Source: Gilliamella sp. ESL0405
GTDB lineage: Bacteria; Pseudomonadota; Gammaproteobacteria; Enterobacterales; Orbaceae
DNA length: 64,000 bases
Assembly: GCF_019469205.1 (NCBI RefSeq)
Contig: NZ_CP048265.1
Coordinates: forward strand, 2,480,001-2,544,000
Direction of reading: 5' to 3'
Part shown: in pieces, positions 19,020 to 64,000 of the stretch
How the letters are laid out: every line of letters begins with the position of its first letter
How positions within the stretch are numbered: the first letter of the stretch is position 1
Program-made: the position numbers and the translations under genes
The notes under the pieces: model-generated
What the model was told of the DNA's origin: nothing
Databases searched by the model: none
Seen by the model: the letters and a program-made list of their open reading frames with translations, nothing else

Positions 19020-20006
19020 GTGAATAAAAAGCATGGTTTATTACTAGTTAATTTAGGCACCCCTAGCGCCGCAACACCGGATGCAATAAAACAGTATTTA
19101 ACTGAGTTTTTATTGGATCGGCATGTGGTGGATCTACCGGCCTTTTTTTGGTATCCACTACTAAAATATATCGTGTTACCTAAACGAGTGCCGTATATCA
19201 TCAACCATTATCAAAAAATTTGGATCGACGGCTCATCACCTTTACTGCATTACAGCCGCTTACTGTGCGACAAACTACAATCGCAATTAACTGATGTGCA
19301 GTGCGAGCTTGCCATGACGTATGGTCAACCAGATATCCAATCCGCATTCAATAAACTTAAGGCGTGTAAAAAAATTACTGTATTGCCGCTGTTTCCACAA
19401 TATTCCACAACCACCACATTGGCGGTTTTAGATAAATTAAGACAGATTGTGGCTAGCGAAAAAAGCAAACAAAAAATCCACTATATTCGTGATTATGCCG
19501 ATCATCCAAGTTATATCCAAGCCCTATATCTACAAATAAAACAGGCTTTCAATGAGCATGGTCAGCCACAAGCGCTTTTACTTTCTTATCACGGCATTCC
19601 GGAGCGATATATCCGCCAACGTCAGGATGATTATATAGAGCGGTGTGAACTGACCACGTTACTCCTTATTGAAAAATGTCAAGCAAAGGGTATCACTGTA
19701 CCGATACATATGGCTTATCAATCGGAATTTGGTAAAGGAAAATGGGTCAAACCTAAAACCTGCGATATGTTGCAAGAAATGGCAAAAAAACAGATACATA
19801 ATGTGCATGTTATCAGCCCGGGATTTTCGGTTGATTGTCTTGAAACGATTTATGAAATCGATCAAGAAAATCGGCAACTGTTTTTCGATGCCGGCGGTAA
19901 GCAATTTCATTATATTCCGGCACTTAATGACGAACAATTACAGGTAGATTTAATCAAAGATTTAATTAATTATACTAAAACATATAATGTTTCTGAAACT
20001 TCTTGA
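19020..20006 (+). CDS. hemH: Ferrochelatase with repeat-encoded C-terminus
   Basis: Inserts ferrous iron into protoporphyrin IX, the last step of protoheme synthesis. I start it at GTG 19020, six bases after AAGGA; a TTG two codons earlier overlaps that site. The metal-binding His is in LLSYHGIPERYIRQRQDDY and the conserved Glu in SPGFSVDCLETIYEI. The last eleven codons (YTKTYNVSETS and stop) are supplied by a copy of the dispersed motif seen in the arrays near 27 and 60 kb. The native 3' end was therefore probably replaced or overrun, but both active-site regions are intact. Confidence 0.94.
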   Translation: MNKKHGLLLVNLGTPSAATPDAIKQYLTEFLLDRHVVDLPAFFWYPLLKYIVLPKRVPYIINHYQKIWIDGSSPLLHYSRLLCDKLQSQLTDVQCELAMTYGQPDIQSAFNKLKACKKITVLPLFPQYSTTTTLAVLDKLRQIVASEKSKQKIHYIRDYADHPSYIQALYLQIKQAFNEHGQPQALLLSYHGIPERYIRQRQDDYIERCELTTLLLIEKCQAKGITVPIHMAYQSEFGKGKWVKPKTCDMLQEMAKKQIHNVHVISPGFSVDCLETIYEIDQENRQLFFDAGGKQFHYIPALNDEQLQVDLIKDLINYTKTYNVSETS

Positions 20007-20009
20007 CAA
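19968..20009 (+). repeat. Single dispersed motif copy in the hemH 3' end
   Basis: The stretch has the head TATACTAAAACATATAATG and the tail TTTCTGAAACTTCTTGACAA, almost the same as the motif in the 163-bp array at 26.6-27.1 kb. It sits across the hemH stop codon: TGA of TTGACA is the stop. It is the only isolated copy I found in the window. Confidence 0.85.
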
Positions 20010-26580: not shown

Positions 26581-27114
26581 TTTTATACTCAAACACATAC
26601 ACTTTCTGAAACTTCTTGACAACAATTGGCATCTAATAATGCGATTAAATCTGTAAAATTGCCCTGTCGGTACTTACGTCTTCTTTAACTTTAGAATCTT
26701 TGGCGATTTAGCTTAGTTATTGGATAAATATTTTCAATTTAGCTTTTATACTTAAACGTATACATTTTCTGAAACTTCTTGACAAGCATTAACACCTAAT
26801 AATGAGATTAAATCTGTAAAATTGCCCTATCGGTGCTTACGTCTATTTGAACTTTGAAATCTTTGTCGATTTAGCTTAGTTATTGGATAAATATTTTCAA
26901 TTCAGATTTTATACTAAAACATATGCATTTTCTGAAACTTCTTGACAAGCATTAACACCTAATAATGAGATTATATCTGTAAATTTGCCCTGTCGGTACT
27001 TACGTCTTCTTTAACTTTGGAATCTTTGGCAATTTAGCTTAGTTAGTGGATAAATATTTTCAATTTAGCTTTTATACTTAAACGTATATATTTTCTGAAA
27101 CTTCTTGACAAGCA
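26581..27114 (+). repeat. Tandem 163-bp repeat array (array A)
   Basis: Three full 163-bp units and a partial fourth begin at 26581, 26744, 26907 and 27070, each time at TTTTATACT. Each unit starts with the dispersed motif (TTTTATACTTAAAC head, TTTCTGAAACTTCTTGACAA tail) and continues with a 119-bp AT-rich core (for example GATTTAGCTTAGTTATTGG). Units differ by scattered substitutions but not in length. 163 is not a multiple of three and no frame is kept, so it is not coding. The array fills most of the gap between the tyrB-like gene and ridA; I see nothing else in that 750-bp gap. Confidence 0.95.
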
Positions 27115-27135
27115 TTAGCACCATAACGGTGCTAA
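27115..27135 (-). terminator. Hairpin after ridA
   Basis: Perfect 8-bp stem TTAGCACC/GGTGCTAA (27115-27122, 27128-27135) with a 5-nt loop, just past the ridA stop on the minus strand and directly at the edge of the repeat array. It has no T-run. Confidence 0.45.
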
Positions 27136-58895: not shown

Positions 58896-59496
58896 TATTC
58901 TACACTCTTAATTAATCTTAATTAATTGTAGGTAGGATTTTATTATTAATAAATGCTTATTTTAACAATGATAAATAATGCTACTGACTAAATATTCTCG
59001 TATACGGCATTCATTATTTTATTTGTGTTATTTTTGTTATTATTTTATGTGAATCCTGTATAACGCAAACAATATCAATACGATACTTCACTTTAGAACT
59101 AATGGTTGCAAAAACTAACTTTTAATTCAAAAGATTGGTGCAATTTGTCAACACCATTAAACTTATTACTATTGATATTATTGCTATGATTAATTTGCAA
59201 ACTTCGGTTTGTAAGCGACTTTTGGCAAACCAATTAAATCTTTATATGATTGTTTAAAATAAACATATTATTTAATTATAATAATTCTACTTACGCTATT
59301 TTATTTTTTGATAAATTGTAATGTCTAACGCCATTGCTGCATTACACGGATAAAATTATCCCCGCTTATTATTCACGTTTCAGCGAAGGATAGCAAGTAA
59401 ATTAAACTTGCTATTTTATCGACAGTTAGCCAATCTTTTTTTAATTTTGCCAAGATACTATTGATAATATTAACAATATGGTTGTTATAGTGATAA
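58896..59496. other. rne upstream region
   Basis: A 600-bp AT-rich gap between rne and the repeat array. In enterobacteria rne has a long leader that RNase E itself recognises, and this gap could hold such a leader on the minus strand; GGTTTG/CAAACC (near 59205-59235) is one possible stem. The dyad GGATAA-AA-TTATCC lies near 59348. I see no gene. Confidence 0.45.
59390..59417 (+). terminator. Terminator-like hairpin before array B
   Basis: ATAGCAAGT (59390-59398) pairs perfectly with ACTTGCTAT (59406-59414) around a 7-nt loop and is followed by TTTTA on the plus strand. There is no plus-strand gene before it. Confidence 0.45.
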
Positions 59497-59590
59497 TTTT
59501 ATACTGAAACGTGGGTATTTTCTGAAAGTTCTTATCAAGATTTGGTGTTTTTTGCTTAAACACCTATGTTTTCTGAAACTTCTTGACAAG

Positions 59591-59954
59591 GTTTTTATTT
59601 CGTTAAAAGTTGCGGTTTTTTGGTTTGCAGGTTTCGGACGCTGTTGATTGGTTGATATTTTCATTACGGTGTCTGCGTCCGAATTAGGGGGATTTTATGC
59701 GAAATCCCCCTAATAACCCCCTCGCAGCACCACCCAAAGCGGTCTTCGACTGCCCTCCGCCTTCGTTCGGTCTTAACGCACCGGCGCTGATTTGTTCCGG
59801 ACAAAGCAGCGCCTCGCCAAACATCCCTGTTTGGCGTGCTAACCTCACTCAGTTGTCGGCGCTTTGTGAAGGTGCGGGTTGGTGCATTTGTTTGCTTTTG
59901 TGGAAGGTAAGGATTAGGGTTTGGGAATATTTTGGAAATATCTTAAACATTTGT
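59591..59954 (+). ncRNA. Core 1, candidate structured element
   Basis: A 364-bp core. Hairpins visible on the plus strand: TGCGG/TTGCA with two G-U pairs (59611-59629); TTCGGACGC/GCGTCCGAA (59633-59641, 59675-59683); TTAGGGGGATTT/AAATCCCCCTAA (59684-59713); GGCGCTG-TTTGT stem with TCCGG loop (59783-59813); and CGCCAAACA/TGTTTGGCG with TCCC loop (59815-59836). An 89-codon frame from the ATG in the loop at 59697 is open but probably accidental. Whether it is transcribed is unknown. Confidence 0.5.
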
Positions 59955-60048
59955 TTTTATACTTAAACATGGGTATTTTCTGAAAGTTCTTGTCAAGGGT
60001 TTGTGTTTTTTGCTTAAACGCCTATGTTTTCTGAAACTTTTTGACAAG

Positions 60049-60411
60049 GTTTTTATTTCGTTAAAAGTTGCGGTTTTTTGGTTTGCAGGTTTCGGACGTT
60101 GTTGATTGGTTGATATTTTCATTTTGGTGTCTGCGTCCGAATAGGGGGATTTTATGCGAAATCCCCCTAATAACCCCCTCGCAGCACCACCCAAAGCGGT
60201 CTTCGACTGCCCTCCGCCTTCGTTCGGTCTTAACGCACCGGCGCTGATTTGTTCCGGACAAAGCAGCGCCTTACTAAACATTCTTGTTTGGCGTGCTAAC
60301 CTCTCTCCGTTGTCGGCGATTTATGAAGGTGCGGTCTGGTGCACTTGTTTGCTTTTGTGGAAGGTAAGGATTAGGGGTTGGGAATATTTTGGAAATATCT
60401 TAAACTTTTGT
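60049..60411 (+). ncRNA. Core 2, candidate structured element
   Basis: Second copy, 363 bp. Compared with core 1, the outer stem reads TTCGGACGT against GCGTCCGAA (a U-G pair replaces C-G), and the last hairpin reads CTAAACA/TGTTTGG (U-G replacing C-G). The frame from ATG 60154 stays open, but several changes alter residues. Confidence 0.5.
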
Positions 60412-60505
60412 TTTTATACTTAAACATGGGTATTTTCTGAAAATTCTTGTCAACATTTCGTGTTTTTTGCTTAAACATCTATATTTTCTGAAAGTTTTTG
60501 ACAAG

Positions 60506-60869
60506 GTTTTTATTTCGTTAAAAGTTGCGGTTTTTTGGTTTGCAGGTTTCGGACGCTGTTGATTGGTTGATATTTTCATTATGGTGTCTGCGTCCGAATT
60601 AGGGGGATTTTTTGCGAAATCCCCCTAATAACCCCCTCGCAGCACCACCCAAAGCGGTCTTCGACTGCCCTCCGCCTTCGTTCGGTCTTAACGCACCGGC
60701 GCTGATTTGTTCCGGACAAAGCAGCGCCTTACTAAACATTCTTGTTTGGCGTGCTAACCTCTCTCCGTTGTCGGCGCTTTGTGAAGGTGCGGTCTGGTGC
60801 ACTTGTTTGTTTTTGTGGAAGGTAAGGATTAGGGTTTGGGAATATTTTGGAAATATCTTAAACTTTTGT
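60506..60869 (+). ncRNA. Core 3, candidate structured element
   Basis: Third copy, 364 bp. It has TTG in place of ATG in the loop of the TTAGGGGG hairpin. It keeps all hairpins seen in core 1, with the CTAAACA variant of the last stem. It is followed by the final motif pair of array B. Confidence 0.5.
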
Positions 60870-61064
60870 TTTTATACTGAAACATAGGTATTTTCTGAAA
60901 GTTCTTGTCAAGGGGTTGTGTTTTTTCTTAAACACCTATGTTTTCTGAAACTTCTTGACATTTTGGTGCACTTTATCATGATGCGAGAAAGATTATCGTG
61001 TATATCGCAATACAATCAGTATAATACGACAATAATATAGCAATAAAAGAGATTTAGATTGTTA

Positions 61065-61604
61065 ATGAGTGTTCCTGAAAAAAAAGCCTTAATTGATTTT
61101 ACCACACGCTGGATAAAGCAGTTTGACAACGCCCCTAAAAGTGAAGAGTTGCATGCCATACCTTCACCTTGCATAATCAAAACAGAGCAGCTAGCGGTAT
61201 ACTGGCAACCTTTTTTACTACAGCCGGCAAAAACGTTAGCTATTGCCGAACAACTGGTCGGCATTACCCTTCAACAAAGTGCCCATATTTTTTATGGCAC
61301 GCAATATGCCGGCAATATGTCTGCAAAATTTGAACAGACAAATTTAGTGTTGCTCCAAGCGTGGAATGATGATGACTTCTCTAATCTTGAACAAAATATA
61401 ATCGCCCATTTATTGCAACAAAAAAAATTAAGACGATTACCGACAATATTTATTGCCGCTACCGATGAAAGTACCGAAATTGTGGCATTAAATAACCTAA
61501 CTGGCGAAGTGGTAATTGAAGACCTGATTAGCGGTGAAGTACGCCCATTGGCAGAAAATTTAACTTGTTTTCTCAATAAGTTAACCGTTTTGCCAGCAGC
61601 GTAA
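61065..61604 (+). CDS. syd: SecY-interacting protein Syd
   Basis: A 179-residue acidic cytosolic protein that binds SecY and monitors translocase assembly. It matches E. coli Syd in several places: ALIDFTTRWIKQF, PSPCIIKTEQLAVYWQP, FYGTQYAGNMSAKFEQ and LLQAWNDDDFSNLEQNI. The ATG at 61065 aligns with the E. coli start. A TTG two codons upstream has better spacing to AAGAGA, so the true start may be 61059. It begins about 100 bp after array B and is followed by aspC. Confidence 0.92.
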   Translation: MSVPEKKALIDFTTRWIKQFDNAPKSEELHAIPSPCIIKTEQLAVYWQPFLLQPAKTLAIAEQLVGITLQQSAHIFYGTQYAGNMSAKFEQTNLVLLQAWNDDDFSNLEQNIIAHLLQQKKLRRLPTIFIAATDESTEIVALNNLTGEVVIEDLISGEVRPLAENLTCFLNKLTVLPAA

Positions 61605-61712
61605 GTTGACCCCTAAAAATTATTTATCGGTTTAACATCATTAACGAAATTGTAAAGTACAAAATAATGTGTTTATAATGCGTTGAGAGTCATTAAAGGA
61701 AATAGGTGAATT

Positions 61713-62888
61713 ATGTTTGAATATTTACTCCAAGCACCAGCTGATCCCATTTTAGGACTAGCGGATCTCTACAACAGTGATGAACGTACCAACAAAATAA
61801 ATCTTAGCGTTGGGGTTTATAAAGATGAAACCACCAAAACACCTATTTTAGAGAGTGTGAAAAAGGCAGAACGTCTATTATTAGACGAAGAAACAACAAA
61901 AAGTTATTTGCCTATTGATGGCGTCCCTCTATTCAACCTTGCAACTCAAAAACTGCTTTTCGGCAGTGAAATGGAGCGAGCACGTACCGCCCAAGCACCC
62001 GGCGGAACAGGCGCTTTACGCATCATGGCCGACTTTTTATCACGCCGCACAAAAGTAAAACGCATCTGGGTAAGCAACCCTTCATGGCCTAATCATCGCA
62101 GTGTTTTCCAAACCGCCGGACTTGAAGTGCGTGAATACCGTTATTACGATGCACAAAATCATGGACTTGATTTTGCCGGATTAATGGAAGATTTAAACCT
62201 TGTCACCGCTGGTGAAGCGGTACTATTTCATGGTTGTTGCCATAATCCAACCGGCATCGACCCTACACCAGAGCAGTGGCAAGCTATCTCTGAGCTAGCG
62301 CTAAAAAATGGCTGGCTACCGCTATTTGATTTAGCTTATCAAGGATTTGGACAAGGGATTGAAGAAGATGTCTATGGATTGCGACTTTTTGCTAATCATC
62401 ATCCTGAACTGTTGATTGCCAGCTCATATTCGAAAAACTTTGGACTTTACAATGAACGGGTTGGCGCATTTACCTTAATTGCTGCTGATGCTGAAATTGC
62501 CGATCGTAGCTTTAGTCAAGTTAAAACGATTATTCGAGCCAATTACTCTAATCCGCCGGCACATGGCGCTAAAATTGTCTCTTATATTTTAAACAATGAT
62601 GAACTAAAAGAAGAGTGGATCGACGAATTAACCAGTATGCGCCAACGTATACACCGTATGCGACAACTGTTTGTCAAAACACTGCAAGATAAAGGTGCCA
62701 ATCAAGACTTTAGTTTTATTGCAAAACAAAACGGTATGTTTTCTTTTAGCGGACTGAGTGAAGAACAAGTACTGAAATTACGTGATAATTATGGGATTTA
62801 CATTGTAAATTCCGGACGTATTAATGTTGCCGGTATGACGCTGGATAATATGTCCAGACTTTGTGAGTCGATCGTTGATGTATTATAA
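61713..62888 (+). CDS. aspC: Aspartate/aromatic aminotransferase, AspC-like
   Basis: A 391-residue class I PLP aminotransferase. The PLP lysine is in [16 protein letters not shown]. Conserved [32 protein letters not shown] and [13 protein letters not shown] are close to E. coli AspC, which makes aspartate from oxaloacetate and glutamate. It is a paralogue of the protein at 25.2-26.4 kb. It lies between arrays B and C. Confidence 0.9.
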
Positions 62889-62900
62889 ACCGTAGCTAGT

Positions 62901-62930
62901 GGCTTGATAATATTTTGATGTTATCAAGCC
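62901..62930 (+). terminator. Hairpin after aspC
   Basis: GGCTTGATAA (62901-62910) pairs perfectly with TTATCAAGCC (62921-62930) around a 10-nt loop, 12 bp past the aspC stop. No T-run follows. Confidence 0.5.
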
Positions 62931-63021
62931 GTAAAGATTACATCCTTTAAGATGCGTTATAGTTTAAAACCATACTGGTTTTATACTTAAACGTATATGT
63001 TTTCTGAAACTTTTTGACAAG

Positions 63022-63385
63022 GTTTTTATTTCTTTAAAAATTGCGGGTTTTTAGTCCGCAGGTTTCGGACGCTGTTAATCTGTCGATATTTTCATTATGG
63101 TGTCAGCGTCCGAATTAGGGGGATTTTTTGCGAAATCCCCCTAATAACCTCCTCGCAGCACCGCCCAAAGCGGTCTTCGACTGCCCTCCGCCTTCGTTCG
63201 GTCTTAACGCACCGGCGCTGATTTGTTCCGGACAAAGCAGCGCCTCGCCAAACATCCCTGTTTGGCGTGCTAACCTCGCTCAGTTGTCGGCGCTTTGTGA
63301 AGGTGCGGTCTGGTGCATTTGTTTGCTTTTGGGAAAGGTAACGGTATGGGTTTTGGGATATTTTGGAAATATCTAAAACTTTTGT
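63022..63385 (+). ncRNA. Core 4, candidate structured element
   Basis: A 364-bp core of the array C subtype. The first hairpin here is fully Watson-Crick (TGCGG at 63042-63046 with CCGCA at 63056-63060), where array B cores have two G-U pairs. Other stems match core 1, including CGCCAAACA/TGTTTGGCG. Confidence 0.5.
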
Positions 63386-63478
63386 TTTTATACTGAAACG
63401 TGGGTGTTTTCTGAAAGTTCTTGTCAGGGGGTTATGTTTTTGCTTAAACACCTATATTTTCTGAAACTTTTTGACAAG

Positions 63479-63839
63479 GTTTTTATTTCTTTAAAAATTG
63501 CGGGTTTTTAGTCCGCAGGTTTCGGACGCTGTTAATCTGTCGATATTTTCATTATGGTGCCTGCGTCCGAATAGGGGGATTTTATGCGAAATCCCCCTAT
63601 ACCCCCTCGCAGCACCACCCAAAGCGGTCTTCGACTGCCCTCCGCCTTCGTTCGGTCTTAACGCACCGACGCTGATTTGTTCCGGACAAAGCAGCGCCTC
63701 GCCAAACATCCCTGTTTGGCGTGCTAACCTCGCTCAGTTGTCGGCGCTTTGTGAAGGTGCGGTCTGGTGCATTTGTTTGCTTTTGGGAAAGGTAACGGTA
63801 TGGGTTTTGGGATATTTTGGAAATATCTAAAACTTTTGT
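63479..63839 (+). ncRNA. Core 5, candidate structured element
   Basis: A 361-bp core. Its AT-GGGGG hairpin reads ATAGGGGGATTT/AAATCCCCCTAT, a paired change from TTA/TAA in core 1. A net loss of two bases just after this stem breaks the reading frame that is open in cores 1-4. One stem (GACGCTG/CAGCGCC) has an A-C mismatch. Confidence 0.5.
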
Positions 63840-63932
63840 TTTTATACTGAAACGTGGGTGTTTTCTGAAAGTTCTTGTCAGGGGGTTGTGTTTTTGCTTA
63901 AACACCTATATTTTCTGAAACTTTTTGACAAG

Positions 63933-64000
63933 GTTTTTATTTCTTTAAAAATTGCGGGTTTTTAGTCCGCAGGTTTCGGACGCTGTTAATCTGTCGATAT
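63933..64000 (+). ncRNA. Core 6, truncated by window end
   Basis: Only the first 68 bp are present. They match cores 4 and 5 (TGCGGG...CCGCA hairpin, then GTTTCGGACGCTG), so the array continues with the same subtype. Confidence 0.45.

What the first reader, a model, noticed from the sequence alone, without database searches (positions are those of the whole stretch)
59497..64000. Motif-core repeat arrays flanking syd-aspC: candidate undescribed element
Seen: at least six near-identical cores of about 362 bp alternate with a roughly 40-bp motif, in two arrays in the same orientation (59497-60960 and 62979 to beyond 64000). The cores are GC-richer than the chromosome around them. Known families do not fit: there is no transposase, no terminal inverted repeats, no CRISPR spacing and no integrase. 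Inference: a structured repeat family amplified through recombination at the motif, possibly transcribed.
Basis: partly seen in the sequence, partly recalled or inferred. Interest (0 to 1): 0.8.

Follow-up and report, generated by a model that had tools for sequence, protein, structure and literature searches.

The report
CRISPR-stripped repeat cassettes in Gilliamella
The repeats beside syd and aspC look like emptied copies of a cassette that, elsewhere on this bee-gut bacterium's chromosome, carries CRISPR memory arrays and has been copied and scattered many times, which suggests a way for one bacterium to multiply its immune memory banks.

Summary
The arrays are real. The chromosome (2.81 Mb, one contig; genus inferred as Gilliamella) explains them. 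The ~365-bp core has 41 matches there: 18 are followed at 162-193 bp by a type I-F CRISPR array, one at 616 bp, 18 near-complete ones (all six of the window) by none, and four are fragments. There are 21 I-F arrays (133 spacers) and one complete cas operon. I read the window arrays as modules that lost leader and array, probably by recombination between repeat-like sequences. Arrays look independently active: shared spacers sit at the leader-distal end (13 of 21 last, 2 of 21 first positions), and 9 of 10 examined protospacer sites have the I-F CC PAM. The motif is a separate 43-bp intergenic repeat family (83 clusters) that also brackets tandem copies of local DNA; one copy sits at the orthologous rne-syd site in 16 of 29 relatives. 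Spread by recombination between motif copies is likely but unproved: four of seven testable module loci lack an ancestral motif, and some relatives scatter cores without it. The core has covariation-supported structure and no Rfam family. New variant of a known kind.

The parts
59498..59588 (+). motif pair A1 (59498-59537) and B1 (59549-59588), left edge of first array
59589..59954 (+). core 1, no CRISPR array
59956..60046 (+). motif pair A2/B2
60047..60411 (+). core 2 (search query)
60360..60400 (+). likely scar where leader and array were lost, followed by the tail hairpin (example in core 2)
   Evidence: junction comparison; inference
60413..60503 (+). motif pair A3/B3
60504..60869 (+). core 3
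60871..60960 (+). motif pair A4/B4, right edge of first array, upstream of syd
62980..63019 (+). single motif, left edge of second array, after the aminotransferase gene
63020..63385 (+). core 4
63387..63476 (+). motif pair
63477..63839 (+). core 5
63841..63930 (+). motif pair
63931..64000 (+). core 6, cut by the window end; complete at G000 2543931-2544296
26581..27122 (+). motif array of the second kind: four motif copies, 163-bp period, locus-specific spacer, no core
19969..20009 (+). solo motif copy (2 mismatches to the 41-base pattern)

Best explanation
The two window arrays are CRISPR-less copies of a dispersed module: motif A - motif B - structured core - CRISPR leader - type I-F array - tail hairpin - next motif A. 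SHOWN by sequence: 41 core matches and 21 I-F arrays with 133 spacers in the chromosome; 18 arrays with the core 162-193 bp upstream; one complete I-F cas operon; arrays at different loci that share leader-distal spacers; spacers that match other Gilliamella genomes, mostly inside phage-type genes, beside the I-F PAM; a 43-bp motif that is an independent intergenic repeat family and also brackets tandem copies of local DNA; one motif at the rne-syd site in many relatives. INFERRED: (1) modules reach new places and grow in tandem by homologous recombination between motif or module copies; (2) each array keeps acquiring spacers through the single Cas1/Cas2-3; (3) leader plus array can be lost by recombination between a repeat-like stretch upstream of the leader and the terminal degenerate repeat, leaving core-only units that still duplicate and move, as in the window.
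For: Core matches 41: 18 with an array 162-193 bp on, 1 with an array 616 bp on, 18 near-complete without, 4 fragments. A same-strand motif within 20 bp upstream of 36 of 41 cores, and a motif within 40 bp after 19 of 21 arrays. All 101 exact repeats of the genome lie in the fetched array loci. cas1f, cas2-3 and csy1-4 over curated cut-offs; csy3 once. Shared spacers: 13 of 21 last, 2 of 21 first, 10 of 112 non-last positions, Fisher p = 3.4e-7. CC directly 5' of the best protospacer in 9 of 10 fetched loci. Core-only junction made of the repeat-like stretch before the leader and the terminal repeat. Units at 2.411 Mb group with the rne-syd units, support 97/86. Single motif upstream of syd in 16 of 29 relatives at 5 mismatches or fewer; best of 20 shuffles per genome 6-9; likewise 2 of 2 for L011 and 3 of 3 for L028. 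Motif just upstream of 4 of 4 cores in the fetched G023 loci L250 and L251.
Against: No motif in the orthologous intervals of L013 (0 of 5), L020a (0 of 4), L020c (0 of 4) and L026 (0 of 1). In the fetched G005, G030, G013, G008 and G022 loci no motif was seen beside the cores, yet cores are scattered. The core-only label changes six times on the core tree (bootstrap 5-7; 1 of 500 shuffles as low), so loss is not a single event, and gain instead of loss is not excluded. Ten of 21 motif arrays show no clear resemblance of spacer edge to own flank, the window's array at 26581 among them. No strain comparison, RNA or experiment was available.
Confidence: 0.68

Rival explanations
1. The core-only unit is the older form, and leader plus array were captured by it later, once or more, and then spread with it.
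For: Core-only tandem units and solo cores occur in G005 and G030 apart from arrays; the tree does not make core-only units a derived clade.
Against: Core-only units keep what looks like the 3' part of the terminal degenerate repeat and its tail, and array-bearing units have a repeat-like stretch before the leader, as a deletion between the two predicts.
Confidence: 0.2
2. A dedicated, unidentified recombinase or transposase acts on the 43-bp motif and moves modules; homologous recombination is secondary.
For: Sharp edges and very high conservation of the motif over 232 copies; bipartite arms with a variable centre; modules at three ancestral motif sites in the same orientation.
Against: No enzyme was found linked to it; RAYT-type Y1 transposase (PF01797) is absent from G000; other enzyme families were not searched. 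The motif has no fold of its own (z = -0.10). Tandem duplication of local DNA needs no enzyme.
Confidence: 0.22
3. The core is a functional RNA or cis-element of the CRISPR system (long leader, regulator), and the window copies are extra copies kept by selection.
For: Two-sided changes in 13 of 42 pairs, 96.4% of cells paired against 34-45% in slid controls; fixed place upstream of the leader in 18 arrays.
Against: In G005 the core is on the strand opposite to the array, and in G030 and G023 many cores lie between other genes with no array. The single-copy fold is only z = -2.1; the count of further pair types does not exceed shuffles (30 against 30.9).
Confidence: 0.15

Closest known systems
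Type I-F CRISPR arrays served by one cas locus (multiple-array genomes; survey PMC12814883)
   Same: 28-bp I-F repeats, ~32-nt spacers, common leader, shared last spacers, CC PAM, one cas operon.
   Different: The survey gives I-F a median of two arrays and numbers up to about 10 as rare; here 21, most as tandem or scattered motif-core modules, with core-only derivatives. The window itself has no array.
Methanocaldococcus jannaschii long-repeat/short-repeat elements (recalled, not tested)
   Same: A conserved long segment of some 400 bp before short spaced repeats, at many loci.
   Different: Archaeal, other CRISPR type, no 43-bp motif pairs known to me; no sequence comparison made.
Dispersed intergenic repeats of the MIRU, BOX or REP kind (recalled)
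   Same: Short, intergenic, many loci, tandem growth at some loci.
   Different: No palindrome or fold, no RAYT gene in this genome; spacers are local DNA or a CRISPR module.
Integron cassette arrays (recalled)
   Same: Units in one orientation separated by a conserved site.
   Different: Units within an array are near-copies of one another, not different genes; integrase and attC were not searched for.

Membership tests
Type I-F CRISPR array (module family) | 28-bp I-F repeats with ~32-nt spacers | tested here: met
   21 arrays, 133 curated spacers, nearly all 31-33 nt; related G005 satellite repeats match Rfam CRISPR-DR4 in the two loci scanned
Type I-F CRISPR array (window arrays themselves) | 28-bp repeats and spacers | tested here: not met
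   no repeat in the window at 3 substitutions or fewer
Type I-F CRISPR-Cas | cas1f, cas2-3, csy1-4 | tested here: met
   csy1 was scored on the part in L025 (profile 87-382), its start lies in L239
Type I-F CRISPR-Cas | CC PAM 5' of protospacers | tested here: met
   9 of 10 fetched loci; 29 of 39 listed matches not examined
Type I-F CRISPR-Cas | crRNA made and interference from satellite arrays | not testable with these tools
   needs RNA and phage assays
REP/RAYT repeats | RAYT gene in the genome | tested here: not met
   PF01797: 0 in G000, 1 of 35 genomes
REP/RAYT repeats | palindromic, folding unit | tested here: not met
   one motif copy folded, z = -0.10
Rfam RNA families | match at gathering score | tested here: not met
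   none for motif or core
Integron | integrase and attC sites | not tested
   no search made
M. jannaschii LR-SR elements | homologous long repeat | not tested
   recalled analogy; one paper search with four terms found no paper

The most novel reading that the evidence does not exclude
Gilliamella carries a mobile memory-cassette system: 43-bp sites, possibly acted on by a dedicated recombinase, let modules of structured RNA plus type I-F array copy themselves into solo sites round the chromosome and expand in tandem, so that one cas operon feeds some twenty independently adapting memory banks, while array-less modules such as those of the window ride on the same spread.
Probability: 0.22. 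Interest if true: 0.9.

Novelty: new variant of a known kind. Interest (0 to 1): 0.72.

Why it matters
A 2026 survey (PMC12814883; abstract, sections 13 and 20 and passages seen) says that multiple arrays arise by duplication, transfer or splitting, and that their purpose and the behaviour of distant arrays remain uncertain. Here one genome shows tandem and scattered arrays whose common origin can be read from shared leader-distal spacers, a candidate physical means of spread (motif-bounded modules), and natural array-less counterparts. Array birth, dispersal, continued acquisition and loss become directly testable in a bee-gut symbiont. The motif family is also a clear case of a short intergenic repeat that brackets locus-specific tandem arrays.

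Tried and rejected
Rfam gave no family for core or motif; on seven further loci only an S15 leader, a tRNA and CRISPR-DR4 (G005) passed. DNA searches of the unit in phages and plasmids, and of core parts in phages and E. coli genomes, found nothing. A promoter or terminator role of the motif was dropped: of 48 solo clusters 17 lie with and 14 against two co-directional genes, 13 between divergent and 4 between convergent ones (genes called from ORFs of 100 aa or more). RAYT/REP was dropped. A protein-coding core was judged unlikely from indels between copies and the pair changes; no formal coding test was run. The arrays of L013 had no match among phages; those of L026 matched Vibrio phages, mostly ICP1 with its own CRISPR locus, and three Flavobacterium phages; I did not work out which pieces matched. 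A single origin of the core-only form was not supported. Papers: nine of ten searches used; mostly caught leadership studies and was useless;'s 40 papers 20 were listed. In these listings I saw no title or abstract on dispersed repeats or CRISPR modules in Gilliamella, but only PMC12814883 (abstract, two sections, passages) and PMC12586679 (passages) were opened, and most subscription papers are not in that library. Rows dropped before counts: 16 core hits in relatives without the anchor sequence were left out of the core set, and 21 of the 64 kept were aligned; one false terminal repeat of ARR10 was dropped.

Full report
OBSERVATION. The window is G000:C1:2480001-2544000 of a single-contig genome of 2,809,609 bases. 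Each unit is a core of 363-366 bp and each junction a pair of motif copies 50-51 bp apart; only the first motif of the second array is single. That array runs on to 2544387. Core G+C is 46-49%, the window's 38.7%. The neighbours are rne, syd and a class I aminotransferase; the gene after the second array is an adenylosuccinate lyase by TIGR00928. The species is not known to me.

THE MOTIF. A 32-base pattern has 241 matches at 3 mismatches or fewer (144 forward, 97 reverse), none for the reversed control. Over 232 copies the information is concentrated in about 43 bp and falls off on both sides. The shape is two direct CTDAAAC/CTGAAAS arms about 18 bp apart with a variable centre. In the fetched stretches 237 copies fall in 83 clusters, 48 solo and 35 arrays; they lie between genes, a few overlapping an ORF end by up to 56 bp. 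Twenty-one arrays have short locus-specific spacers of 63-246 bp; in 11 of them a spacer edge resembles the array's own flank beyond the 99th percentile of cross-array comparisons (8 by start, 5 by end). These look like tandem duplications of local DNA round a motif; for the other ten, including the window's array at 26581, the test was not decisive.

THE CORE AND CRISPR. The core has 41 matches in the fetched stretches; 36 have a same-strand motif within 20 bp upstream. At seven fetched loci the units are longer and the added DNA is a CRISPR leader and array. A repeat scan gave 21 arrays and, after dropping one false terminal repeat, 133 spacers. All 101 exact repeats counted genome-wide lie in fetched loci. 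Eighteen arrays have a core 162-193 bp upstream and the common leader end; ARR1 has 616 bp between core and array, ARR9 and ARR17 have no core near and no intact leader. Of the 41 cores 18 belong to those arrays, one to ARR1, 18 near-complete ones have no array (six of these are the window's), and four are fragments. Nineteen of 21 arrays are followed by a motif within 40 bp. The cas operon has cas1f, cas2-3 and csy1-4 (for its layout); csy3 occurs once.

ARE THE ARRAYS ALIVE? Between arrays 23 of 133 spacers have a partner at 75% similarity or more: 13 of 21 last positions, 2 of 21 first, 10 of 112 non-last (Fisher p = 3.4e-7; the highest of 5,000 comparisons with reversed spacers was 0.75). 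One terminal spacer family links arrays near 1.708 and 2.137 Mb, another those near 0.06 and 1.644-1.653 Mb. ARR14 and ARR15 share four spacers and differ at the leader-proximal one. Repeats are nearly uniform within arrays; eleven main variants occur over 20 arrays, so some arrays share one. A query of 73 spacers, 72 from arrays away from the cas genes, matched 20 of 34 other genomes of the genus at E <= 0.05 (39 rows). Ten rows came with fetched loci: best matches with 0-4 mismatches, eight distinct spacers, from ARR4, 13, 18, 19 and 21; CC lies directly 5' in 9 of 10, and the tenth has AT. Because nearly all spacers given were from satellite arrays, this does not compare them with the array at the cas genes. 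Of eight proteins at these sites seven match PHROGs (tail sheath twice, tail fibre J, helicase/primase, repressor, Rz-like spanin, an ATPase-like one) and one matches none.

WHY NO ARRAY IN THE WINDOW. Array-bearing units run from the core into a stretch like the 3' half of the repeat and then the leader. Core-only units follow that stretch to the same point and go on like the terminal degenerate repeat and tail. Recombination between the two would remove leader and array. On a tree of 36 cores the core-only label (18 rows) changes six times, so repeated loss or exchange between modules is needed. Units at 2.411 Mb include identical pairs and group with the rne-syd units (97/86), so core-only modules moved too. 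That arrays were gained instead is not excluded. The tail folds well in one array-bearing unit (z = -2.9) but not in the window's (z = -1.0).

ANCESTRY OF THE SITES. Upstream of syd 16 of 29 relatives carry one motif at 5 mismatches or fewer, same place and orientation; the best of 20 shuffles per genome was 6-9 (five further genomes of the genus gave no fetched locus). The same holds for L011 (2 of 2) and L028 (3 of 3). None was found for L013 (0 of 5), L020a (0 of 4), L020c (0 of 4) and L026 (0 of 1, a genome without exact motif matches). So three of seven testable module loci sit on an ancestral motif. At other module loci, and on the aspC side, synteny was not established.

THE CORE ITSELF. 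On 21 cores from seven genomes 96.4% of cells pair; 13 of 42 pairs have two-sided changes (shuffled mean 9.0, 3 of 500 as high); slid controls pair 34-45%; the number of further pair types does not exceed shuffles. A covariance model matched 27 of 295 genomes of the order at E <= 0.001: 13 of this genus, two of other genera of the family, 12 weaker ones elsewhere, where the match is mainly hairpins of the 3' half. In G005 cores lie beside three satellite I-F arrays, on the opposite strand. In G023 a diverged motif stands just upstream of 4 of 4 cores in L250 and L251.

MECHANISM. I favour homologous recombination among motif and module copies, giving tandem series and dispersal, with continued acquisition by the one Cas1/Cas2-3 and repeated loss of leader and array. 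Copying, acquisition and loss are inferred from sequence alone.

NOVELTY. The survey PMC12814883 gives I-F a median of two arrays and calls numbers near ten rare, with a maximum of 23 for a V-A locus. Nine searches of the open library listed no paper on such modules in Gilliamella. I file it as a new variant of a known kind.

Noticed in passing
L021 and L022 (G000 1668-1710 kb): Genes left of L021 and right of L022 are about 1.6 kb apart in G011 and G001 but about 42 kb apart here, with module arrays at both ends: the modules may bracket a larger insertion or rearrangement. In G029 the two genes are far apart.
   Followed up: partly
L013 (ARR4 spacer 4) and L020 (ARR10 spacer 7): Two arrays at different loci hold almost the same spacer (0.97) at non-corresponding positions, perhaps separate acquisitions from one target.
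   Followed up: no
L011, G000 59111-59488: Between core and damaged array ARR1 lies foreign-looking DNA with a 125-codon ORF on the other strand; it looks phage-like to me from memory, not tested.
   Followed up: no
L247, L248, L250, L251: In G030 and G023 cores alternate with tandem paralogous genes of about 460-490 codons for a secreted-looking protein; the one tested has no Pfam family.
   Followed up: partly
L289 and L296 (genomes G112 and G169): Weak core-model hits lie near an ORF with a sub-threshold Y1_Tnp match (RAYT-like by eye) and near an IS110-type transposase ORF.
   Followed up: partly
L241, L242, L244 (G005): Satellite I-F arrays use a repeat different from that of the array beside the cas genes, so two repeat types coexist with one csy3.
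   Followed up: no
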